The notes beneath the pieces were generated by a model that saw only the letters and a list, made by a program, of their open reading frames with translations, had not been told where the DNA came from and did not search any database. This document shows positions 5,440 through 51,143 of a stretch of DNA of 64,000 nucleotides, piece by piece (position 1 is the stretch's first letter; each line of letters opens with the position of its first letter). Source of the DNA: Cokeromyces recurvatus. Its lineage: Eukaryota > Mucoromycota > Mucoromycetes > Mucorales > Mucoraceae. The DNA is taken from contig NW_026251408.1 in NCBI RefSeq assembly GCF_025118155.1, forward strand, positions 1-64,000. The letters are read 5' to 3'. Made by a program: the position numbers and the translations under genes.

Positions 5440-7899
5440 ATGTCCTCTAATCAATCTGTCTCTGCTGAATCTGTTTCCACTCCTGTTGCTCAAGACATGG
5501 CTACTCCCATGGTCCTTGATGAACCTCCTATCCTATGGTTACAACTCCTTCATCTGTTTCCGAATCTACTATGGATACCCCTGCTGATGAAGTTGATATC
5601 CATACCAACACTACACCTGAAGAAGTAATCAATAATGCAAAAATCTCATTGAAGAAAATGAAGTCCAAGTCTATGATCTTGTTGGCTAACTTGATGCATC
5701 TCCAAGAGCATCAACCTGACTCACCTGAAACGACAAGAGCATTGGAAGCCTTCCAAACATATCAGAAGTGATATGAAGATGTCTTAGCTGCTTACAATTC
5801 TTTTTTCTGCTACAAATTTTAAAACAGAAAAGAAAGACTCTGCCTCAATCCGCAAGGATACTCTTGTTCCTCCTGACTTAGCATTCTTACAACTCAAGAC
5901 TGATGCTACTATTACAAAGAAGAAATGTGAAGTTTTCGATAGTGTCTATGATTTTTGCGACCAATTTAAAACTATCTTGGAAGCACACTCTCTACCTTTG
6001 GATGAACATTAAGAACGTCTCTTGCCCCCTGTTTTAGTAAAGAAGCTAGGTCTTGGTTGGAAGAAAAGCTCAAACATAAGAATCTCACTTGGTCTGAAGC
6101 TGAAGCAATGATATTGGATCATTTTGATACTCCTTATCGCAAGTTCGTGCTGATGACTAAGGTATGGTCTTTAAAACAAGAAAAGTCTAAATCTGTTAGG
6201 TCTTATGCTGCCAAATACCAAAAATTACGTCGTCAAGCTGATCTAGAAGATGGTATCCAACTGGTACTTAACTTTTGGTGCTCTCTTCGGGAAGAAGTAA
6301 GGAATGTCTCTTCAGTTGCTGTTGCCTCTCACTACGGTACAAAACTACCTACCAATATTGAATCCATGATTGACCTAGTGATTGCTTCTACTAATGACTC
6401 TGATTTGGTTGCTTCCTCTTCTTCTGTGGCTAGTAAAAATTTTGATTCTGAGATTTATAAAGGACATAAACGTCATAGACGTAGTTCCTCTCCTCATAAA
6501 GATACTAGTAAAGGAAAATATAATCCTAATAAAGTATCTAAGCTACAAGCATCTTCCAAACCCTGCAATTATTGTGGTCGTGTTTGGGTAAAAGGTCATA
6601 AGTGCAGTGAATTCCTTGAATATCGCAAGAAACTTAGAATCAATAAAGAAAATATGAAGGTCTCTAGAATGGCCATGATGTCGAAACATGCGGTATATGA
6701 TGAAGATGATATAAAGGATGCTGATGACATCAATGAAAATATCAACCGTATGGCTTTACAATAACATTCTCATTAATGAATTGCGCTGCTAACTTTTCTT
6801 CTTGTGATATCAATTTTTGTATAAAAAACAAAGTTCCTATTAAATATTTTAATAATAAAATAATAAAGATAATAATACTATTAAGTTAGCTGATAAAAAT
6901 ATGTTTGTTAAAAGAATTGGTACTTGCGTATTAACTGTTCAATGTAACAATAAAAGAATTCAACGTAAATTTGAAATAATGAATCTAACAAACAATAATA
7001 ATGAATATGAATTCAGTATTGGTTTAGATTATATGTTTATCTTAGGAATTGGTTTAACTGGTTTACCTATTATATTTGATGATAGTAATTCTGCTCAAGA
7101 AATAATCGAAGCTGATAAACGTTATAATAATAAAAGTGATTTACTAGAATCTATTGAAAAAGAAAATAAAGCGTTAGTAAACTGCCCTGTTGGTTCACCT
7201 TCTGAAATTAAAGAAGCTATGGATTTTATTAAGCCATTTACAAATAAGAACCGTGATATTCCTAAAGGATCATTTTGTACAATACCTGAAAGTGTAGTCT
7301 CTTTAGAAACCCCTCCGGATGTTGTTGCTTATAGAAAGCCATATCCTGTTCCATTATCATTAATGCATGTCGTTGATGAACAAGTTAATGAATGGTTAAA
7401 CGAAGGTACTATAAAAGGAGCACTTGTCAACACTAAATGGAATACACCTTTGACAGTGGTAAAGAAAACTAATTCTAGAGGTGAAACTACTGGATATAGA
7501 GTATGTTATGACCCCAGACATATTAATAAATTATTAAAAAGTAATGATCGTATGCCTTCATCTATAATAAGTGAACTATTTGAAGAATTAAAAGGTGAAG
7601 CTGTATATTCCACCTTAGATTTAAATATGCTTTCCATTCATTGAAATTAAATGAAAAAGATCAACATAAATTGGCGTACTACACAATATGTCCCTATACC
7701 TTGTGTATTCGCTATAACATATATCAGTAGTTTCTTCGAAAGAATAATGAGTATAATTCTCGAAGGTATGCCTTTCGTACGTTACTTTATTGATGACATT
7801 GTTTGTATGAATTCTAACTTGAAAGAACATAAAATACATTTAAAACAGGTGATCCAAAGATTGACTGAAGTAAATTCACCGTCAAATCATGACACATAA
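5440..7899 (+). pseudogene. Degraded Ty3/gypsy gag-pol (gag, protease, start of RT)
   Basis: Plus-strand retrotransposon remains downstream of the LTR at 4794-5413. Gag begins at 5440 (MSSNQSVSAES), shifts frame near 5535, is damaged between 5771 and 6057, and resumes at 6057-6764 with the zinc knuckle CNYCGRVWVKGHKC. The 6901-7644 frame carries the protease-RT linker and the first RT blocks (NTPLTVVKK, RVCYDPRHINK, YSTLDLN). A further frame (7651-7899) holds the RT active-site motif FIDDIVC. Frameshifts near 7625 and stops show that it is dead. RNase H, integrase and the 3' LTR are absent, so the element is truncated at about 7905. Confidence 0.85.
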
Positions 7900-7904
7900 T
7901 TAGG

Positions 7905-9728
7905 TTTATCAGTGATTTAATGTAGTAAACATGAAGAAGAAATGAAGAGTGTGGCACAAAGGTAACAAAAAATCCCCTTTATTTATACTACATTATATAG
8001 TAATAATTTTGATTATTTATTATAAACTCTCTAAGTAATATATATTTTACTAGACTACAAAAATTGAGTGGGAAGTAAAAAATTAATAAATATATATTGT
8101 TAAATAGATTTTATAAAAATAAGTCACGAAAAACGGCATAGGTAGTTACGTCGGCATAGGTGGTCAATGTAGTTTTTTGACATTTATGTGTTGATGTATT
8201 TCGAAGTCCGAACACAGTAAGATAAGTAAATAAGCCTGAGTCATTTTATTAAGCTGCTAATATTATTTACTCATAAGCAAGTAACCTTAACAGAAACTGA
8301 CAAGTTTACTTAATAATAGCATAAAATGATTTCAAAACTAACTTATTACTGATAAAATTGGAAGCTCCTATTATTCGGACAACTGTATTTTAATAAACCA
8401 TACAGTCAGACCTATGGAAACTGTCGTTTTCTTAAGCCAAAACTAAATATCCGCTTTAGAAAATTTTTTGTCATAAGTTTAGGTTATTTTTGGCAGTTTG
8501 TCCGAAAAAAATGACGCGATTTGCCAATTAAAACCGTCATCTCGTCAATTGTATTTTAAATACTCCCTCACCAAAAATTATTCTAATACACTTTATCCCT
8601 TTTTGCTGTGGACATTTACAAACACCATTTATACAAGTATTTTGCTGATAATTCAACTTAGATCCCTTGGGTTCTTTTCACTTGTTTTAAATCTTTCCAT
8701 TCTTTTAATCTTTTACTGTTTATTAGGGCCATAAAAACACAAGAAGGCAATTATGACGAATTAAACTACCCGAATAATACTGGCATCACCCAAAGGAAAG
8801 TAGAATAGCTCTAAAGTTTAGAGAATTTCAGCGACAATTTCAGCTGTATCCATTTCAATCTTGAAAGAAACTCATGTCCCTAGCCGAGTCATGGCGCTCT
8901 ACTATACATATGAATCTTCGAGAGGATTTTAAGTTGATTGACTTTGTCGACTGCTTAAGCCTGTTGATTGTGACAGCCTCTGACATCCTGTTGAATAATG
9001 TACTACAATCATTGGGCTGTAGTTTCATCCTGGGTAGTCTGATTGTTCAATCCTTCTTTATGGAAGAGTATTGTAGACTGTTCTAAAAATGTATCATTTT
9101 AGTTTCGTTTAAGATTGGTTTAGATAATACTTAAACATAAAACCACTGTTTATATGGTTTATAAGATTAACTTGTACTAGCATATATACATATTGTAGAG
9201 TCTGATAAGTTAGTACTTTGGTTAGTATAATTGATGCCATTGATGGTACCCCCGACATTTACGTAGTAAGCCACTTCGAAAAGTAATAAAAAAAAAACCC
9301 AACTAATCCAGACATTATATGTAAGCTAATGACGAATATTGCTCGGCTAACTCTCAAATGTGAAATGTCCTTGACATTAGGAAATAATTGGAACTCGCAA
9401 TGATATTCTTTTCTCAAGATATTGAAATTATTATCTGATGTAAGGGAGTTGGAATAATTGATATAAATAAGAAAGTGGTTGAGAAAACAAAGACAGAATA
9501 GAAGTTCCATGACGAATACAATAGATATTCTAGTTGCTGCTCACCACAACCATCTTATCTTACATGAATGGTGAGCGATAAATGCGAAAAGAATACTCAC
9601 TTCACATATGAAGTAATAGCACGTTTTTTTTAATAGATATGTCGACTAAAAGACAGTGAAATCCATCTAGAAAAATTAGGGCATAATGCGTGAAAACATA
9701 TAAATTATATTAGTACTTCTGGCGATAT
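7905..9728. other. Gene-poor AT-rich stretch with an orphan transposon terminus
   Basis: No convincing gene is present. At 8405, after TA, a sequence starting CAGTCAGACCTATGGAAA, with TTTTTGGCAGTTTGTC about 90 bp further in, resembles the left end of the 7.3-kb element at 43851. I found no matching right end. Short open frames at 8498-8734, 8874-9086 and 9259-9510 have no recognisable motif and are probably chance. Confidence 0.5.
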
Positions 9729-10110
9729 TACAGTGACTCACAAAACTGTTTACATTTTCCGAAATTTTACGGATATGAAAAAATTAACATTCAAAGTTAA
9801 AACAGTAAATTCACATATAATATACCAATACTAATTGAAAGCTTTACATCTGCTTGATTTGTATATAATCATACTACAGTATTATTCCAAATAAATAGCG
9901 GCTTATGAAATATAGTTTTGCGTTTCTGGAAATGTAATTTTGCGATTTTTGAAATTTAGTTCGCGGTCTCTGACCTTAGACTTTGCGCCCACTACCATTA
10001 ACTTTGCGCCCATTGCCATTTAACCAAAATTTCCCAGGTACCAAAAATAACACATTTATCTATTAAAAAAAAATAAAAAAAAACTAAAGCATATTCTCTA
10101 GCTTAAGACA

Positions 10111-11584
10111 TCACTCAAAAAAGGTAGTTGAATGGCGAATCCACCCTTCGCAATCAGAGGTACTGACTTGTTTTGCTGCTTCTATAATTCGTGGTATAAG
10201 ATTAGCTTTGTCAGTAAGACCATTTCTTTTGATGCCATATTTGATTTTTGACCACATTTCCTCTATTGGGTTTAAAAAAGGTGAATACGTTGGCAAGAAC
10301 ATATACTTATACCCACGCGACACCACCAAATCCTGAATTTCTTTTGACCGATGGATAAGAGCGTTATCCATAACCAAATATCGTCCTTTCATTCCTGCGG
10401 CATCCAGCTCATCCATTGTTTCATTCAAGAACGCCATAAAATGTTCTGTACGAGTTCCAATCTTTCCATTTATACCGAGTTCAACATCTCTGTCAAAGTT
10501 GATTTTTATTTTCTTCTTTGAAATTACGGCCGTGGGTTTTTTCACAGTAAGATTTACAATACCAGATTCGCATATGGCACCAAGGATAGTTATGTTTATG
10601 CCTCTAGTAGTAGTAACAAGCGATTTAGCTGGCGTGCCTTTAATGGATCTACCATAGTACCTCCTCATGTTCATATTGAACCCGGCTTCGTCAATGAATA
10701 CACAGTTATTGAAGTAGCTAAAATCGGGAAGATTTTGCCACTCCAAAATTTTGTCTTTCCGCTTTTCAATGGTTTCAGGATCATTCCTTTCCAAACAGAC
10801 CACTTGCAACTTCTTCATTGTCAAGTTACAATGCTTTCTCAGATGTTTTCCAACTGCATTTGGGATGATTTTCATTCCTTCAAAGGCACATATCAAAGCA
10901 GCATGGACCTGTTCTAATGTATATGTAGGGTTTGCTTCATAAAGCTCCAAAAAGAACTTTGTATGAGCTTTAAAGAGCTTCTGATTACCACACTTTCTTT
11001 CTTTTGGTACAGTAGGGACGGTGGGCTCAGCTTGTTCTTCGTCACTATTTACCTCCGTAATCTCTACAATTCTTTCTTCTTCGACAAGCTTTCTGGTCCT
11101 TGAGCACATAATCTTGTGCAGTTCGCTCCTTGATCCCAATATCTCTGGCAACATGTGCAGCGATTTCTCCTTCAACTAAGCATCTATAAAGGAGACTATT
11201 AATCTGCTCTTCGGTATATTTGCGGTAGCCAGTTTTAAAAAGGCGACTGGCCAGAGATGGTTGTTCCTTTTTAGACCTTTCACCAGAAGTTTAAGCCTTT
11301 TTTGGAGCAGAAATATTATTTGATTTAGATGCTCCGCTAGGTCTGAAAGTAGAGAAGGCCAATATTTTTTCTTGGCCATTGTTACTAGAAGACCATTCCA
11401 TTGATGCACTGGTAAGTAACTGATTATCGGGCTGAGGACGTTGAACTCTAATTTGGAGATCTTGAATATCATTATCAGCGTGAAAAGGGAGGACATCTTC
11501 CATGGGGGTACAGCTAATAGACTCGGAATTCAAGAGGGCATTGTGCTTGTCCATAACAAATTGATAGGTTTGATTAGATGACAT
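10111..11584 (-). pseudogene. IS630/Tc1-superfamily transposase of the two-gene element
   Basis: A DDE transposase reading from ATG at 11584 to 10111. In order: a poorly conserved N-terminus (MSSNQTYQFVMDKHNALL), a helix-turn-helix (TEEQINSLLYRCLVEGEIAA to IKERTAQDYVLK), an acidic linker, then an RNase H-like catalytic domain. The catalytic blocks are FIDEAGFNMN, YLVMDNALIH and LPTYSPFLNPIEEMWSKIK, i.e. D, D and E. The copy is broken by an in-frame TAA at 11291-11293 and by a frameshift near 11090-11115, although the catalytic domain from 11175 onward is uninterrupted. The second family member is at 17973-19022. Confidence 0.85.
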
Positions 11585-13700: not shown

Positions 13701-13847
13701 CCGGTGGCCGCAAAGCTAAATGGCAGTGGGCGCAAAGTCTAAGGTCCGAGACCGCGAACTAAATTTCAAAAATCGCAAAATTACATTTCCAGAAACGCAA
13801 AACTATATTTTATAAGCCGAAGCCGTTATTTATTTGGAATAATACTG
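13701..13847 (-). repeat. Right terminal inverted repeat of the two-gene transposon
   Basis: Inverted copy of about 9877-10020. Shared words include GCGCAAAGTCTAAGG, GCGAACTAAATTTC, AAAATTACATTTCCAGAAAC and the terminal GGAATAATACTG. A few substitutions separate the two ends, which fits an aging copy. Confidence 0.8.
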
Positions 13848-14335
13848 TATTCTAACTGGAGGACTACGGAGTCTAGAATCTGGCTTTCAAATTAACATGT
13901 CCGTGTAAACAGTTTTGTGACCGTATCTTAAAAAACTAAAAAGTCGTTACCACAACTCGGTTTTTGATATATATCGGACTGCTACTTAGCCAGCATTTAG
14001 CTTCTTGTATCATTTTTACTCTTTATTATTAGGTTTTAACTTCAATATATAGGTACGTTTATTGAATATGGCTGCAATTCCTGCAGATCAACGTGATAGC
14101 GTTATTCCTCTCTTGAAATCTGGAGTCAGCACAAGAGAAGTAGCTAAAAGGGTTGGAATTAGTCTTGGTGGAGTATCCAAAATTGGAAGACAAAATTGCT
14201 TTAACAGAGATAAGAATAAAGGCGGAAGACATAGTATCTTGACTGCAGCAGATAAAAGGCATTGCGTGCATTTAGTAACCAAAGGGCGTCTAGAAAATGC
14301 GGTTGAAGTCCAAAAACAACTAAAAATGGATTATA

Positions 14336-27635: not shown

Positions 27636-27780
27636 TTTGTTTTATGTATGTAAATAAAAAAAAAAAGAGAGAGAGAAAAAGAAAGGCTTTTTGATTTAAA
27701 ACTACAGTATTTTCGGTTGAGTTTGGGACGTTTTTAAAAAATTTTGGGAAATTTTGAAAATCATTTCGAGGACCTCATGT

Positions 27781-27815
<35 letters not shown>

Positions 27816-29577: not shown

Positions 29578-29831
29578 CATTAGCGTCCGTCAATTAAATA
29601 AAATAAAATAAATAATATATTTGTATACTACTCCATCCTACCCAAGTATAATATTATTGTATCCATCAACAACTTAAATGTTATTTAGAAACTGGACGAG
29701 AGTATTTATTATGAAAATATACAAACAAACAATTTTATATTTATATAAAAAAAAAAAAAAAATATTACATGAGGTCCTCGAAATGATTTTCAAAATTTCC
29801 CAAAATTTTTTAAAAACGTCCGAAAATACTG

Positions 29832-43151: not shown

Positions 43152-43850
43152 CTTGATGTGCTTTTATATTTAAACTCAATGAAGGAAATGATTATGATTG
43201 GCACAATTATTAGGCACAGAGGTTTTTTTTTATGTGCAGCAGTAGAGTTCACTACAATACTAATTACTTACTTATATTCTCTTCTTTCTAGTACAGACAG
43301 TACAATGGATATTGTGGCAAAAGAACTTTCAATCTGTCGTTTTTATTTTTGTTTATAGTCTTTTTTAGGAAAAGCGGTATTGTCGCAAAGGTTTTTTTTT
43401 TGTAATTTTATTAAAATTTTTTAGAGAGATTCTTTATAATTTTGTTATAGAACAAGTTCTGGATATAAGCACAAGTAATATTAAAAAAGATAGATTATAT
43501 AATATAGGACGAACTATAAGCCTGAACATATAATAATAAAAGATATCATATCTTTTGTACATTCTTTGAAACTCTATTTCTTTCTTCTCTTTAAAGCCAT
43601 TATTCCTCTCAAACTGATCAAAACCTAAAGAGCCTTGTTATCATGATCATCATAAAAAAAGAGCTCAATTGTCATAATACAGTAGTAAGAAAGCTTACAG
43701 CCTAACTATTTAAAATGCATAAACCACCAAGAATATCTTGTGAAATTACAATTGAAAAAAGCGTTCCACAACACAGCTAAAAGGGAACATCCTGTAAAAC
43801 TGTAAGAAATAAAACCGCTGTATAAAATGACATTTTTTATATTATTGATA
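43058..43850. other. Gene-free spacer with a 41-nt poly-T tract
   Basis: AT-rich sequence between the orphan gene and the long-TIR transposon, including T(41) at 43111-43151. The open frame at 43158-43358 has no recognisable features. TA at 43849-43850 is the target site of the transposon. Confidence 0.6.
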
Positions 43851-44297
43851 CAGTCAAGCTTATGGAAATTGGCGTTTTCTTAAAAATAATTGGCCTAAAG
43901 TCAAAAATAAATGCCCACTTTCGAAAAAAAAAATTATCACAATATTAAACTATTTTTGGCAGTTTGTCTAAAATAAATTGTCCATAAAAAGGAGACTAGT
44001 TTGGCCGGACATTTGAGGCAACTTTGACCAATTTCTGGTCAAATAAGTCACAAAGGTTCTTCATTAAAGTGTTCAGGAAAATGCTTTATGAAATGCTAAA
44101 TGAAACTGCAAATGTTCAGCTGGAACATCTTCACTTCCTTCAACGCCCCTTGAGATAGGAGCTTCCACATCAGTCAACTCGCTTCTTCTGACTCTATTTT
44201 TCAAAGCTTTCCGAAACTGCCCAATAAGGTTGAGCTCAGGTGAATAGAATGAGAGATATACAGGTATATATTCTCGTTCAATAATTACAGGATTAAC
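43851..44297 (+). repeat. Left terminal inverted repeat (447 bp)
   Basis: Inverted match to 50693-51141. Read on the minus strand its inner part encodes YIPVYLSFYSPELN and GQFRKALKNRVRR, the C-terminal end of an IS630/Tc1-type transposase, with the usual NPIE box changed to NLIG. The outer 170 bp are non-coding, with the word TTTTTGGCAGTTTGTC shared with 8405. Confidence 0.9.
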
Positions 44298-44562
44298 AAT
44301 ATTATAAAATGACAGTAGACAAGTAATAAATATACTTTGTAACGGTTATCAAATGTTCTTATTATAAATTCAAATGTATGGATTTATATATAATACATCT
44401 TATGATTGGTAAGTTGTATGTCTTCCTTTAGTGAATGTCATTAGTCATAACAATATATGTGTTTGCCATGAGACAGAAAAGATGACATTAATTAATTTAA
44501 AATAGACAGTATTTTTTTAAAAAGAAACTATACAATAGTATATACTCATTTATGATTATTTA

Positions 44563-45966
44563 CTAGTGGCCAAATCTCAAAACACATCGGCGTGTGCTGT
44601 CTTGAGCTGTATCAATCATGGCATCCAAACTCACTAGAGTTCTTCTGTATCTTTCTTCAATTATATCGGGTTGCTTGGATTTTCTACAGAGGCTCCAGAA
44701 AACGTCACTGACCCCAAGGAGTTTTTTGATATTGATCATAGTGAAGAGAGAAGGTAAATCATCCAGGGATTGAGGAAAGCGAAAGTGAGCAATTTCAATA
44801 AAGGTATATATGCCCTTGGCAGTTAATTGTTGAAGGTAAAAAATGATATTGAAACCATGTATCTGAAAGGCAAGAGCACCATCAAGCTTATTTATATCAA
44901 TGGCATTTCTAGTGAATATTGCCAAACGGAGCGTGTCCAGACATAATGACTTGCTACAAGAACCTTGTAGGGTTTTGGCCTCACCATAACCAACACTATA
45001 TCCAAATGACATCTGTCGTTTTTCACTAATTACTGCATCAGGTCGATTTTTTCCTTTTTCCATAGGGATAGCATTAGTCCAGCGAAGATGAATGAGCCGG
45101 TCAGGATCGCTTATGAGGCAAGACAATAGGGGATCGAAGTACGTACTCCACAACTCGCTTTCACTAATTTGTTTGTAGTCATTTAAAGGTCTTGTTGGGA
45201 GTTTTTGAATCCTTAACTCGAAGCCCCACAACAAAAGTCAGTAAAATCATAATTTTTATAAAGTCCATCAAACTTACAGGTTGTTAATACCATATAGAAG
45301 CCGTTTTTGGCCATAATTCATCTGAGAAGCCAGAACTGTAAACTCCGTAATTGCTTGTTCTCTTGTTTTTTCTGCTAAGCTGAGATCCGTAAGAGTATTG
45401 GTGATTGTCATAAAATGGTTCGAGGGAAAGTCAAGGCTATGGTTTATTATCTTTTGTTCAAGGAAAGCCGTTAGTTGCTGCAGTGTTTCCAAAGAAAAAA
45501 CCTTTTCTGCAATCTCGCTATGTTGGTCTTTGCAAAGAAAAAGAATGTGGGTCAAAGACGCGAGTTCATGCACGTAGGATTCCACTGGTAGGGTCTTGTG
45601 TTTCACGAGGATTTCGCTAGTAGCAGCTTGGTATTTGCGGAATAAATGGCTAATATTAATATCCTTGAACATCCATGGATTATCGTTTGTATCTTCTTCA
45701 TTTACAAAGTTATTCATGACACTGACTAAATAGTCCTTCACTTCAATCAACAGGGTATTAGTGAGACTTGTTGGTTCATTGGGAGCAGAAGAATCATCAG
45801 AGATGTCAAAAGCAGAGGAATAATCAGAGACCTCAGGAACAGAAGAATTGCTAGAAACATTAAGAGCAGAGGAATTGCCACTAGACGCCCCGTTGCTTGC
45901 AGCAGTGGTTTGTAGAGATTTGAGTCGTTGTTCAGTCACAATGTCGATAATCTCGCTGCAACCCAA
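44563..45966 (-). CDS. Cargo protein with PD-(D/E)XK nuclease-like motifs
   Basis: Two coding blocks. Block 1 (45274-45966) has a Ser/Asn-rich N-terminal part and a helical region (HELASLTHILFLCKDQ). Block 2 (44563-45234) contains SESELWSTYFDPLL, then KNRPDAVIS, then VGYGEAKTLQG, then a helix (CLDTLRLAIFTRNAID) and beta-rich sequence. The order E ... PD ... (G)EAK fits the PD-(D/E)XK fold, so metal-dependent nuclease activity is inferred, not shown. The gap between blocks has a GTAAGT donor at about 45273, but no acceptor fits the frame cleanly, so there may be a frameshift. The block-1 frame lacks a proper ATG; the 5' exon was probably separated by the insertion at 45986. As such the gene may be inactive. 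Confidence 0.55.
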
Positions 45967-45985
45967 TTCAGTTTTAAGTAATGTA

Positions 45986-47616
45986 CACTATTTCCGGAAA
46001 TTATTCATTCATAAAAAAATAAAAAATCGTTCACAAAAAAATTAAAAAATAGTTCACAAAAAGATTTTAAAATTCATTCGTTTTTAGTGAACGAAATAAA
46101 CGAAATATTAAACTGGCTTTCGATTCAAGCAATCATTAAACTTATCAACAGAGTAGCGGCAGAAACCTTGAAGGTCACTGAGCAAAATATTGTTGCATAA
46201 ATCTCGGATTCTTGATGTCATTGTCTCTTCCTCCAATAACCTTTCTCGCTTAAGTTTACTTTTGACTACTGACCAAAATTGTTCAATAGGGTTCAATTCA
46301 GGTGAGTAAGAAGGAAGATATATGCAACGATATCCACGACCTTCAATATACTTCTGTATATCTTCGTGTTTATGAATGGGGGCGTTATCCATTACCAGAT
46401 AATAGTCCTTAAATTTTGGATGTAAATCCATGACATCTAAACAGCTAGCAATGAAGTTAAAATAATGACCAGTAACTGTGCCCCCTTTCGTTGCTTGTTT
46501 AGGAACAGGTTTACTTCCCTCTGCTTTTCTTTTTTTATTTGGAGCATGAATTTTTGGTCGTCTTACTCTAACATTAACTATGCCATGTGCACATATGGCT
46601 CCTAGTATAGTTGTTGTTTTTGCCCTAGTTTTAGGTACAACAACTACAGCCCTTTTTCCTTTTCTAGACCAAGCTACTGATCTCTTCATGTTAATATGAA
46701 ACGCAGCTTCATCTATGAAAACGCAATTGCTGAAATAATCCATATCAGTTTCAAGTATCTTTTTCACCCAGTGGTACCGCTCCTCAATTTTTTCAGGGCT
46801 ATTTCTTTCTATTGAGTGGAAATGATCTCGTTTCAGGGTGATATTGCATTTCTTGGTTACAAAGTTATGAACTGCTGATTTTTTTATTTCAATACCGGGG
46901 AATTGACTAGTGAGACCTTCTATCATTTCTTCCAATGTAGAAGATGACTTTTCGTCAATGAAATTGATCAGAAACTGTTTATGTTCCTCTGTAAGAATAG
47001 GAGGTCTACCAGCTTTTCTACCACTTCCAGTTTGTCTCAGACTCATTTCTTCATCCCCAGCAAGCTCTGCTTTCTTTTTCCAAGTTTGTGCCGTACTTTG
47101 AGGCACTTTTATTTCCTCAGCAGCGGCACGTACACTCATCCCTTTCTCATAAATAAGGTAAAAAAAGTAGTTTTTGACTTCAGGCTTATAAGTTCGATAT
47201 ATTCTTTTATTTTCATTGTTATCTTTTTTTTCTTCGTCCTTCGTAACCACTTGTTCAATCTTGGCAGGTTTTTCAGGTGGCTTCAAGTCCAAGTACATGT
47301 CGTAATTAGTAACATCCTCAAGAGGATATTCTAATTCATCAACTTCCATCTCAAGAACTGCAACTGGTTCGCCTTCTTCATTACGAAGGTTTCCTTTACC
47401 ATCTTCATGTATAAATTGGTCCATTGTTAAAAAAAAATTATTTTCGAAAAATGAACGAGATTATTTCCTACGAGTAATCAATTTTAAAATCTTTTTGTGA
47501 ACTATTTTTTAATTTTTTTGTGAACGATTTTTTATTTTATTTTTTAATGCATTTTTTTTTTCTTTTGTGAACGAAATTTTTATTTTTTTATGAACGAATA
47601 ATTTCCAGAAATAGTG
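45986..47616 (-). mobile_element. Intact-looking 1.63-kb IS630-like transposon
   Basis: Ends CACTATTTCCGGAAATTATTC (first 20 bases used) at 45986 and the inverted AATAATTTCCAGAAATAGTG at 47616, flanked by TA on both sides (45984-45985 and 47617-47618). Inside each end are repeated TTCGTTCA/TTCACAAAAA motifs, probably transposase-binding sites. It encodes one full transposase. It sits just upstream of the cargo gene's first coding block. Confidence 0.9.
46108..47424 (-). CDS. IS630/Tc1-superfamily transposase, apparently complete
   Basis: A single uninterrupted frame of 438 codons from ATG 47424. Order of parts: an acidic N-terminus, a helix-turn-helix (MSVRAAAEEIKVPQSTAQTW), an arginine/glycine linker (GSGRKAGRPP, an AT-hook-like GRPP), a second DNA-binding region, and the RNase H-like catalytic domain with CVFIDEAAFHINM (D), YYLVMDNAPIHK (D) and LPSYSPELNPIEQFWSVVK (E, spacing about 35). 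It would catalyse cut-and-paste transposition into TA. With intact ends nearby it is a plausible active autonomous copy. Confidence 0.93.
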   Translation of the reverse strand: MDQFIHEDGKGNLRNEEGEPVAVLEMEVDELEYPLEDVTNYDMYLDLKPPEKPAKIEQVVTKDEEKKDNNENKRIYRTYKPEVKNYFFYLIYEKGMSVRAAAEEIKVPQSTAQTWKKKAELAGDEEMSLRQTGSGRKAGRPPILTEEHKQFLINFIDEKSSSTLEEMIEGLTSQFPGIEIKKSAVHNFVTKKCNITLKRDHFHSIERNSPEKIEERYHWVKKILETDMDYFSNCVFIDEAAFHINMKRSVAWSRKGKRAVVVVPKTRAKTTTILGAICAHGIVNVRVRRPKIHAPNKKRKAEGSKPVPKQATKGGTVTGHYFNFIASCLDVMDLHPKFKDYYLVMDNAPIHKHEDIQKYIEGRGYRCIYLPSYSPELNPIEQFWSVVKSKLKRERLLEEETMTSRIRDLCNNILLSDLQGFCRYSVDKFNDCLNRKPV

Positions 47617-47849
47617 TATTATCGTCTTTTTACTGATTAACGAGATTTTTTTTTTGACAGAGCACAACTGGAGAGATTCACAGCTTATCGGTATTTTTCC
47701 CCAATTCTCTATTTTTTACTTGCTTTATTTCACACTATTATCTTTGATCCTATTTCAGTGTTTATAATCAGTCTGGGATCGTTCAAATAAAACTGGGACA
47801 CTCGTCTTAATTTGAAACAAAGTAACGTTTTTGGTATATAAAGAATATA

Positions 47850-50114
47850 CAGTAGGACCTCGAAATAACGATATAAATATAACGATAAATCTTGAAATAA
47901 CGATATTTTTTTGAGAAATTAAGGTTTACCAGCCAAAATAACGATACTCTTGAAATAACGTTGTGATATTTTTTTTTGAAAATATCGTTATATTACTAAT
48001 TTTTTCTGTATTTTTATTGGATAATTTGAAATATCTGAGAATGAATGTTAATTTCTTTTAAAATAATCAGCATTTAGGGTTGTTTGTGTGGTTCGATTAG
48101 AGTATTCTTCATTTCTAATATCATCCATGAAGGCCATAATATCGACAAGAAGTTGTACTTGAGAATCATTTTTCGGGATGCAAAACTCCAGGAAAGCATT
48201 ACCAGCAGTGAGAAGAACTTGGGCTCTGGTAGAAGTTGATATTTCTTCTTCAATTTCTTCTACATCGTCGGTATCTTCATCAACTCTTTGTTCAACCTCT
48301 TCTAAATCTACTGAAAAGGCGATACCAGCATCTTTAATACCAAAATTTTCATAGGCAGGAAAAAGGTCAACGGAATCATCTTCCATATCCATTAACTTCA
48401 TAGACTCTTCAATTTCGCTATTAACTCCATCGCTCTGCAATTCAACAAGCTGCTCGTCTACAGCGATCTCTTTATCGAAAAGCTTGGTATGGTTATCGCA
48501 GTTTTTGATTGTTTCTGCAGATACATTGTTCCAAGCAGCCTGGATGGTTTGCATTCCAGTCAATTGAGTTTGGTGAAAGAAATTTTTCTTTTTGTTATCT
48601 CTAAGACTAGGTGGTAGCAACTGGAAGTATCGCTCAACCAAAGAACTATCGCGAATGATAGGATTATCATGATTTTTTTTTTGACTTTTTGAGCAGCACA
48701 GTACTTCACTGATGCTCTGATGTATTGGATTTTCCTATAAATTATCATTAATTACTTCATTATAATAACTACACATCATTTAAACATACTTGTATTGCTT
48801 TTTGAAGGAAGCAATAATACCAGCATCTAAAGGTTGCAATTTCACATTTGACAGTTTCAAACTGGTATCATGCACGGATGCATTATCCAAAAGCACAAGA
48901 ACATTTCTGTTTGCTTTTCTCATTTCATTGTTGAATTTTTTGAAATAGTAGCTGAAGATTTCCTTGTTCATCCAAGCATTTTCGTTGTAGAAATAATAGT
49001 TAAAGCCATACGTCTCGGCTATATACATTGGTGCAATCAGTCTTACTGATCGAAATGGAATATCTTTTCTTGTATTTACCTGATTTTTTTTAAACGATTG
49101 AGGCTGTTTAGCTTTACCGATGATTACAGGCTCCACTTTTTCACCTTCTGCACTATACATAAATCCAATGGTTAACCGATCTTTATTGACCTTAGATCCA
49201 GAGACCTCTTCTAAAGAAATAGTTTTCTGTGGTGCTTGACGGTAAAACAACCCGGTTTCATCGAAGTTGAAAATGTCTTTGAGAGGATACTTGGTAATTT
49301 CACCTCGAATACGGTCAATTTCCGTTAAAATATGATCGCTTGTCATGTCCACCGAACCAGCCTCGCCGTTCATGATTCTGCATTTGAGGCCATTGCGTTT
49401 CATAAGGTTATCCAACCACCCATTGGAAAACGCTGGCATTTCATAACCATTTAAGAGTTCGATATGTCTCCTGCAGTAGGCCTCTGCTTGCAATCGTAAA
49501 GAAAGACCGTTGATTGCAAAGTTTTGCTTCTCCATATCAGTAACAAATGTTACGAGCTTACTTTCCAATTCCGGATATTGAGCCTTTCGTAAGTTGAACG
49601 CTTTCAACTCATTAGTAGTAAGAAGTTCAAGCGAATCATACCCCTTAAGGATACCGTTAATAGAAGACTGGGCAGGAACTTGGTCTAGAATGAACTTATC
49701 CTTTGCCCATATGCAAAGATCATTCTGCGAAATTTTTGGACCTTCAAAATATCGGTGGCATATTTCGAGCTTTTCTTCATTACTGAAACGAATGCGCTTT
49801 CCAACAGTTGGTGCTTTGTTTGAAGCTGTTCTTTTGGCAATTAAAGATCTAGATCTATTGAATGTTATGGAACTATGTCGAATGTTTCTTTCATTGCTTT
49901 TCTTGTTGAGTTTATAAGTCATTTTGTATATAAATGATTGAATAAAAGGTTAATTACTTTAAAACATCACTTAAAATAACGGTTGACTAAAAAGGAAATC
50001 AAATGTCACACACAATTATTTTGACGGTTTATTGACTGCTTTCTATAACGATAATCTTGAAATAACGATATTTTTTTTCGATTTTTTTGATATCGTTATT
50101 TCGAGGTCCTACTG
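47850..50114 (-). mobile_element. 2.27-kb pogo/Tigger-like transposon
   Basis: Ends CAGTAGGACCTCGAAATAAC at 47850 and the inverted GTTATTTCGAGGTCCTACTG at 50114, flanked by TA (47848-47849 and 50115-50116). Subterminal copies of CTTGAAATAACGATA occur near both ends (47890, 47950, 50053). It encodes a two-exon transposase. It lies within the 7.3-kb long-TIR element. Confidence 0.92.
48048..49922 (-). CDS. Pogo-like transposase (CENP-B type DNA binding, DDE_1 catalytic domain)
   Basis: Exon 1 48786-49922 and exon 2 48048-48734, joined across a proposed 51-bp intron (donor GTTTAA, acceptor TTATAG), give 607 residues. The N-terminal region has a psq/CENP-B type helix-turn-helix (EEKLEICHRYFEGPKISQND) and a second HTH (GWLDNLMKRNGLKCRIM). 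Catalytic blocks are FNFDETGLFY, VLVLLDNASVHD and LQPLDAGIIASFKK, the D-D-D arrangement of pogo elements. After it come MQTIQAAWNNVSAETIKNC, also typical, and an acidic tail. No stops occur in either exon. A GTATGT donor 4 bp upstream would give a shorter reading, so the exact splice is tentative. It may be active. Confidence 0.88.
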
Positions 50115-50115
50115 T

Positions 50116-50692
50116 ATCATTTTTGAAGATGTAAACGAGGTAAAAGGTAAAAAAATAATGTTCATCTGGAAGGCGGTGTGGACTTGCAGGTGGTTAGTAG
50201 CCAGAGAAGACTTGCTAGAGGAAACCTTGGTTTCTTCGTGTGAGATTGGAGGCGAATCCCCCTTGTCACTGGTGCGATGAATGGTTCTTGGATGTACATG
50301 CATTGGGTTTCTTCTGCACACGTGTAGAAGTTGCAATGGGAGTAGTAGTCAGAGAAATTCTTGCTAGAAAAAACTCTTGTTTTTTCTTGTAAGTTTGGAG
50401 ACAAACCTCTCGACGTTACCAATGTTATGACGATCTGTGTTCATCATCCATTTGGGTTTCTCCCTTGCTACATTTGAACATACATTAATCATTAGACTTG
50501 TTACTAATTACACTTTTTCTCTCACCACATCCCACTTGGTTCAACCTCCATCCTAATCCTATTCAAAATCCTAATACAATGGTCATCCAATATGATATGA
50601 AAACAGAAGTACCTACAAAGCCAAATACTGTCAATTAGTGGAACTTGTACTGGTATCATAGTAATGCTAATCCTCGCCCTCTATTCGCTTTA
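50116..50692. repeat. Internal part of the long-TIR element with an imperfect tandem repeat
   Basis: Two diverged copies of a unit of about 140 bp, at about 50190-50330 and 50331-50460. Shared words include AGTAG(C/T)CAGAGAA, CTTGCTAGA(G/A)(G/A)AAA, and GGGTTTCT. The minus strand has a 75-codon frame (50109-50336) that could be the cut-off 5' part of the cargo gene, but I cannot show this. Confidence 0.5.
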
Positions 50693-51141
50693 TCGTTAAT
50701 CCTGTAATTATTGAACGAGAATATATACCTGTATATCTCTCATTCTATTCACCTGAGCTCAACCTTATTGGGCAGTTTCGGAAAGCTTTGAAAAATAGAG
50801 TCAGAAGAAGCGAGTTGACTGATGTGGAAGCTCCTATCTCAAGGGGCGTTGAAGGAAGTGAAGATGTTCCAGCTGAACATTTGCAGTTTCATTTAGCATT
50901 TCATAAAGCATTTTCCTGAACACTTTAATGAAGAACCTTTGTGACTTATTTGACCAGAAATTGGTCAAAGTTGCCTCAAATGTCCGGCCAAACTAGTCTC
51001 CTTTTTATGGACAATTTATTTTAGACAAACTGCCAAAAATAGTTTAATATTGTGATAATTTTTTTTTTCGAAAGTGGGCATTTATTTTTGACTTTAGGCC
51101 AATTATTTTTAAGAAAACGCCAATTTCCATAAGCTTGACTG
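50693..51141 (-). repeat. Right terminal inverted repeat (about 449 bp)
   Basis: Inverted copy of 43851-44297. On the plus strand it encodes the transposase-like tail SFYSPELNLIGQFRKALKN followed by a stop near 50920. Confidence 0.9.
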
Positions 51142-51143
51142 TA

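What the first reader, a model, noticed from the sequence alone, without database searches (positions are those of the whole stretch)
43851..51141. Long-TIR transposon with near-identical 447-bp ends and a non-transposase cargo gene
The ends match over about 447 bp with no differences in the parts I compared, yet the element has since received two other transposons. It carries a PD-(D/E)XK-like gene in place of a transposase, which suggests a non-autonomous cargo carrier moved by a related transposase. The terminal sequence starts CAGTC and the target is TA, as in Tc1/IS630 types, but long TIRs of this kind are unusual there.
Basis: partly seen in the sequence, partly recalled or inferred. Interest (0 to 1): 0.75.

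Follow-up and report, generated by a model that had tools for sequence, protein, structure and literature searches.

The report
Fungal long-armed transposon with captured gene
In the genome of the mould Cokeromyces recurvatus a defunct jumping gene has two identical mirror-image ends around a captured copy of a nuclease-like host gene, a fungal case of a known trick by which mobile DNA picks up genes.

Summary
Arms 43851-44297 and 50695-51141 are identical over 447 bp, end in CAGTC at both outer edges and are flanked by TA. The host is Cokeromyces recurvatus, a Mucorales fungus.

Each arm is the 3' end of a Tc1-like (DDE_3) transposon: its terminus plus a decayed 73-codon transposase tail. Closest relatives of the tail are 62-68% identical. 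The full arm was found only here; partial relatives lie at 8 other places.

The cargo belongs to a Mucorales-wide multi-copy family with a PD-(D/E)XK-like motif. This copy has no recognisable N-terminus, ends at a Tc1-like insertion, and has a pogo insertion further 5'.

The nested Tc1-like copy carries 13 changes of its own per 1608 sites, the arms none: probably the arms were homogenised or copied late. A second long-armed element (1.1-kb arms, another captured gene) differs only near its arm edges, as gene conversion would leave; a third, 1.03 kb, shows no cargo.

Verdict: a Tc1-derived, foldback-like Pack-TIR element, non-autonomous, probably dead; new variant of a known kind.

The parts
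43849..43850 (.). TA target-site copy, left
43851..44297 (+). Left arm, perfect inverted repeat of 50695-51141; holds the transposase tail on the minus strand (44076-44294)
44563..45211 (-). Cargo gene exon 2 with stop (PD-(D/E)XK-like motif RPDA...GEAK); the open frame runs to 45234, splice site read by eye
45276..45966 (-). Cargo gene exon 1 (open part); homology to the C2 paralog continues up to the edge of the nested Tc1-like element
45986..47616 (-). Nested Tc1-like element, 438-aa DDE_3 transposase ORF 46108-47424, TA at 45984-45985 and 47617-47618; splits the cargo gene
47619..47847 (.). Spacer between the nested elements; the part tested (47628-47846) is found nowhere else in the genome and shows no match above chance to the C2 paralog
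47850..50114 (-). Nested pogo/Tigger-like element (ORFs of 380 and 197 aa), TA at 47848-47849 and 50115-50116; no other copy found in the genome
50122..50531 (-). 5' flank of the cargo gene, about 71% identical to the flank of the C2 paralog
50695..51141 (-). Right arm, perfect inverted repeat of 43851-44297
50698..50916 (+). Decayed 73-codon C-terminal tail of a DDE_3 transposase inside the right arm
51142..51143 (.). TA target-site copy, right

Best explanation
It is a non-autonomous, foldback-like derivative of a Tc1/mariner-type (DDE_3, CAGTC termini, TA target) transposon that holds a captured member of a host gene family. Inferred steps: an old element decayed to a truncated 3' end; an inverted copy of that end came to lie on the far side of a host gene (template switching or repair synthesis), giving two equal 3' ends; a related transposase acting in trans could then pair the two outer CAGTC ends and move the whole piece into a TA. 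Later a Tc1-like element landed inside the captured gene and a pogo element landed 5' of it. Arm-to-arm gene conversion, or late copying of one arm, keeps the arms identical. Shown here: arms, ends, TA flanks, the transposase remnant in both arms, the cargo family, the nested insertions, no second full copy found. Inferred: the capture route, movement in trans, conversion at this locus.
For: Arms end at the family terminus and TA on both sides. Both arms hold the same decayed transposase tail; its eight best matches are 62-68% identical, five of them 434-435 aa long. L043 (C22) has the same terminus 5' of a decayed transposase, and that transposase's tail also matches the arm, so an arm equals terminal repeat plus 3' coding end. 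Cargo and its 5' flank match the C2 paralog locus at DNA level with a shared intron position, so the copy is DNA-derived. Clock: the nested Tc1-like copy differs at 20-21 of about 1608 sites from four copies that differ from each other at 0-2; three outgroups assign 13 of 20 changes to the window copy, 7 to the others; 7.2 arm differences expected from the 13, none seen, P about 0.0007. Of the 13, nine lie in the ORF, 6 replacing and 3 silent, as for drift after insertion. L041 (C43:16756-24945): all 6 arm substitutions lie in the first 47 or last 41 columns (P about 2e-7 with cut-offs chosen after seeing the data), and arm positions 951-1104 match the DNA next to paralogs of its own cargo gene.
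Against: Only one full copy was found, so movement as a unit rests on the TA flanks and the clean ends; TA alone is common (9.5% of dinucleotides). The clock assumes that the 13 changes came after insertion; some may be older. L041's left flank reads CA, not TA. No empty site was available. The nearest paralog is far too diverged to be the donor (dS about 1.5-1.6).
Confidence: 0.72

Rival explanations
1. Composite: two separate insertions of the same truncated transposon end, in opposite orientation, happen to flank a resident gene; the segment never moved as a unit.
For: Termini of this family are scattered through the genome (16 other pattern hits), and single ends without a good partner exist (L013, L015).
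Against: Both arms stop at the same inner point, and neither side continues into transposase sequence. TA lies only at the outer edges; a separate insertion would need its own second end.
Confidence: 0.12
2. Local inverted duplication or assembly artefact: one transposon end was copied in inverted orientation across an existing gene, without transposition of the whole.
For: Single copy; arms identical; in L041 one arm seems copied from the other, cargo edge included.
Against: The copied arm ends exactly at CAGTC and is followed by TA. L014 shows a small long-armed element with TA at both ends, so such builds do occur as insertions. Artefact not tested: no reads were available.
Confidence: 0.13
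3. The nuclease-like gene is a regular, functional part of a mobile package, not a chance capture: a PD-(D/E)XK protein that helps these long-armed elements move or keep their arms alike.
For: Two long-armed elements carry genes with an ExK-type motif (motif in L041 read by eye); the family is under purifying selection.
Against: 0 of 17 other fetched family loci (14 places) had a Tc1-like transposase match within about 1.5 kb, although two such matches in 56.7 kb of the rest of the window make 0 only mildly informative. The two cargo genes are not similar. The third long-armed element shows no cargo. Here the gene is broken.
Confidence: 0.05

Closest known systems
Foldback-like elements (Foldback, Galileo, Tetris)
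   Same: Very long inverted arms, transposase lost, no autonomous copy found. [quoted passage not shown]
   Different: That paper says most foldbacks seem to belong to Mutator, with exceptions; this one is Tc1-derived, carries a transposase tail in each arm, lacks internal arm repeats, and has a gene between the arms.
Pack-TIR / Pack-MULE / Pack-TYPE elements
   Same: Non-autonomous TIR transposon around host sequence. PMC8277862 (passages) describes single-copy and multicopy Pack-TIRs in animals and explains capture by gap filling and template switching.
   Different: Fungal; the nearest paralog in the genome is old, not a recent donor; long identical arms.
Tc1 elements of Mucorales (CreTc1 and kin)
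   Same: Same host and superfamily, TIRs generally over 100 bp (PMC5630946, passages).
   Different: Those described carry a transposase; here the arms are longer, include transposase coding sequence, and enclose another gene. Whether the arm belongs to the CreTc1 family was not tested.

Membership tests
Tc1/mariner (DDE_3) derivative | TA target duplication | tested here: met
   TA on both sides of the arms; no empty site was available
Tc1/mariner (DDE_3) derivative | Terminus shared with transposase-bearing relatives | tested here: met
   L043 (C22): same terminus 5' of a decayed DDE_3-type transposase; L012 (C50): terminus plus tail
Autonomous Tc1/mariner element | Own complete DDE transposase | tested here: not met
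   Only a 73-codon decayed tail in each arm; the DDE ORFs inside belong to nested elements with their own ends. Hence derivative only
Foldback element | Arms much longer than in relatives, transposase lost | tested here: met
   447 bp against a 146-bp TIR in the related L044 element; CreTc1 TIR given as 218
Foldback element | Internally repetitive arms | tested here: not met
   Only 7-9 bp self-matches in the arm; so foldback-like in build, not filed as a Foldback
Pack-TIR | Host sequence between the TIRs with related copies elsewhere | tested here: met
   C2:763386-764877 paralog plus 27 further matches at 18 other places
Pack-TIR | Identifiable donor copy | tested here: not met
   Nearest paralog has dS about 1.5-1.6; lowers the claim, a lost donor is possible
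PD-(D/E)XK nuclease superfamily (cargo) | Conserved catalytic motif | tested here: met
   E198, R203, D205, E224, K226, Q263 at 90% or more in 25 sequences; reading them as the motif is recalled knowledge; in the wider 37-sequence alignment, many of them partial, no column reaches 90%
PD-(D/E)XK nuclease superfamily (cargo) | Fold | tested here: inconclusive
PD-(D/E)XK nuclease superfamily (cargo) | Nuclease activity | not testable with these tools
   none

The most novel reading that the evidence does not exclude
CAGTC-ended Tc1-like transposons in Mucorales repeatedly turn into long-armed elements: one end is copied onto the other around a captured gene, the arms are kept identical by arm-to-arm gene conversion, and arms can grow by taking in captured host DNA (as L041 suggests). 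They would form a fungal class of gene-capturing Tc1 foldbacks, with nuclease-like gene families as common cargo.
Probability: 0.28. Interest if true: 0.55.

Novelty: new variant of a known kind. Interest (0 to 1): 0.36.

Why it matters
Gene capture by TIR transposons is best studied in plants and animals. Here one fungal genome offers three long-armed CAGTC elements, two with captured genes, and nested insertions that serve as a clock, so one can test whether long arms are kept alike by gene conversion. Arms that contain former cargo DNA would explain how very long TIRs arise.

Tried and rejected
Autonomous partner in the same genome: not found. Six long-ORF transposases match the arm's tail at 56%; one was fetched (L044) and has different ends. 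A 62% match over 45 residues (C26) is not in a long frame. Cargo as part of a general Tc1 package: not supported. None of 17 other fetched loci (L023-L039, 14 places, about 1.5-kb flanks) had a Tc1-like transposase match, but the control is weak: 2 such matches in 56.7 kb of the rest of the window. The C2 paralog, fetched with longer flanks, has one. Retrocopy: rejected, intron 1 is kept at the same place, although a second intron of the paralog is absent. The 64-bp inverted repeat around the C2 paralog occurs only there, meaning unknown. L042 (C3) as a long-armed element: ends alike over 41 bp only, not pursued. Single ends: L013 has an inverted candidate partner at 6 of 24 mismatches, of which the first 12 bases fit, L015 one at 7 of 24; neither is convincing. 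Structure: both models weak; Foldseek's own list shows no nuclease fold among the 50 rows printed.

Papers: searches gave no paper in their listings whose title or abstract start names this element or a PD-(D/E)XK cargo in Tc1 elements. PMC5630946 does treat Tc1 elements of Cokeromyces recurvatus (passages). Passages only were seen of PMC8277862, PMC3828361, PMC7928374, PMC4079207 and PMC5630946. A Muszewska 2017 paper cited there is not held. That Tc3 has TIRs of 462 bp is recalled.

Limits: 7 of the 20 clock changes fall on the other lineage; some of the 13 may predate insertion; the clustering P for L041 used cut-offs chosen after seeing the data. An exon 2 dN/dS was wrong through a misframed join and was redone.

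Full report
Where it is. The window is contig C15:1-64000 of a 28.05-Mb assembly in 64 contigs. The best protein hit of the cargo, P0001, is a Cokeromyces recurvatus entry on a contig of 423,285 bases, the length of C15, so the host is this Mucorales fungus.

The observation. The arms 43849-44301 and 50691-51143 match at 452 of 453 positions; the single mismatch is at 44298/50694, which leaves exactly 447 perfect bases inside the two TA dinucleotides. Both outer edges read TA|CAGTCAAGCTTATGG. The two nested transposons are real: a Tc1-like one at 45986-47616 with a 438-aa DDE_3 protein, and a pogo/Tigger-like one at 47850-50114 with DDE_1 and HTH_Tnp_Tc5 domains, each bounded by TA.

What the arms are. 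The arm codes for a 73-residue remnant, the same in both arms, that aligns with the C-terminal end of DDE_3 transposases. Where relatives read YSPELNPIEQFW the remnant reads YSPELNLIGQFR; that this loses the catalytic glutamate is recalled knowledge of the family. One search found 195 transposases and listed the best 120; all 120 matched the remnant at E 0.001. The best is P0055 (300 aa, no organism named) at 68% over 63 residues; the best of full length is P0069 (435 aa) at 67%; a Parasitella protein, P0064, has 65%. In the own genome six long-ORF transposases match at 56% over 64 residues. The outer part of the arm is the family's terminus: it recurs at 5 of the 8 other places and, by pattern with up to 3 mismatches, at 16 places beside the two arms, with 0 hits for the control pattern. 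In L043 (C22) the same terminus lies 5' of a decayed transposase whose tail also matches the arm. So each arm is a transposon 3' end, and this element has two.

Age and arm identity. The nested Tc1-like copy differs from four other copies at 20 or 21 of about 1608 sites, while those four differ from each other at 0-2. Three more distant copies (87-94% identical) assign 13 of the 20 shared differences to the window copy and 7 to the others. If the 13 arose after insertion, the arms, if older than the nested insertion, should show about 7 differences; they show none (P about 0.0007). So the arms were homogenised, or one was copied from the other later. This rests on one clock, and part of the 13 may predate insertion.

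Other long-armed elements. L041 (C43:16756-24945) has arms of 1121 and 1113 bp with the related terminus CAGTCAAACCTATAGAATTTGGC. Its 6 substitutions lie at alignment columns 41, 43, 46, 1081, 1097 and 1114, with two indels between; such clustering at the edges is what a conversion tract leaves. Its 150-aa ORF beside the left arm has relatives in Mucor, Benjaminiella and Cokeromyces and paralogs at C43:2457-2867 and C24:1509-1919. Arm positions 951-1104 match the DNA directly beside those paralogs at 69%. So captured DNA is part of the arm, and the right arm is probably a copy of the left. Its left flank is CA, so a TA duplication is not intact. L014 (C10) holds a 1.03-kb element with arms of about 360 bp, 99% complementary, TA|CAGTCCGGC on both sides, and no gene seen. 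L042 (C3) has ends in the right orientation but only 41 bp of arm.

Reading. The build fits a Tc1-derived, foldback-like Pack-TIR. In print, seen as passages only: Pack-TIRs in animals with gap filling and template switching (PMC8277862); foldback structure thought to arise by transposase loss and TIR elongation (PMC4079207); Tc1 elements of Mucorales, this species included, with TIRs generally over 100 bp (PMC5630946); TIRs of 200-250 bp in animal Tc1-like elements (PMC3828361); Tc1/Mariner as the largest TE group in Mucorales, over 200 copies per genome (PMC7928374). So long TIRs as such are normal for this group. Against a special link between nuclease-like genes and these elements: 0 of 17 other fetched family loci had a Tc1-like transposase within about 1.5 kb, with a weak control of 2 in 56.7 kb, and the two cargo genes are not similar.

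Verdict. Observation confirmed; interpretation partly right. A single, probably immobile element; the interest lies in the arm biology and in the second and third long-armed elements.

Noticed in passing
window 47850-50114: The nested pogo/Tigger-like element has no other match in the genome by DNA search and none by protein search with its 380-aa part (E 0.001), odd for a transposon with long ORFs; a recent arrival from elsewhere is possible.
   Followed up: partly
L041:257-8446 (C43:16756-24945): Second long-armed CAGTC element, 8.2 kb, 1.1-kb arms, another captured gene, a LINE-like ORF by eye and a transposase remnant inside; arm differences only near the edges.
   Followed up: partly
L014:1994-3022: Small 1.03-kb long-armed element, arms of about 360 bp, TA|CAGTCCGGC at both ends, no gene seen.
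   Followed up: partly
L040:892-955 and 5754-5817 (C2): The nearest cargo paralog and a decayed Tc1-like transposase are enclosed by a 64-bp inverted repeat (95%) found nowhere else in the genome.
   Followed up: partly
window 27722-27800 with 29747-29825; 9875-10012 with 13705-13849: Further inverted pairs (97% over 79 bp; 91% over 145 bp) that may be ends of other transposons.
   Followed up: no
window 8401-8425 and 10096-11004: A lone TACAGTCAGACCTATGG terminus and, 1.7 kb on, a Tc1-like transposase match.
   Followed up: no
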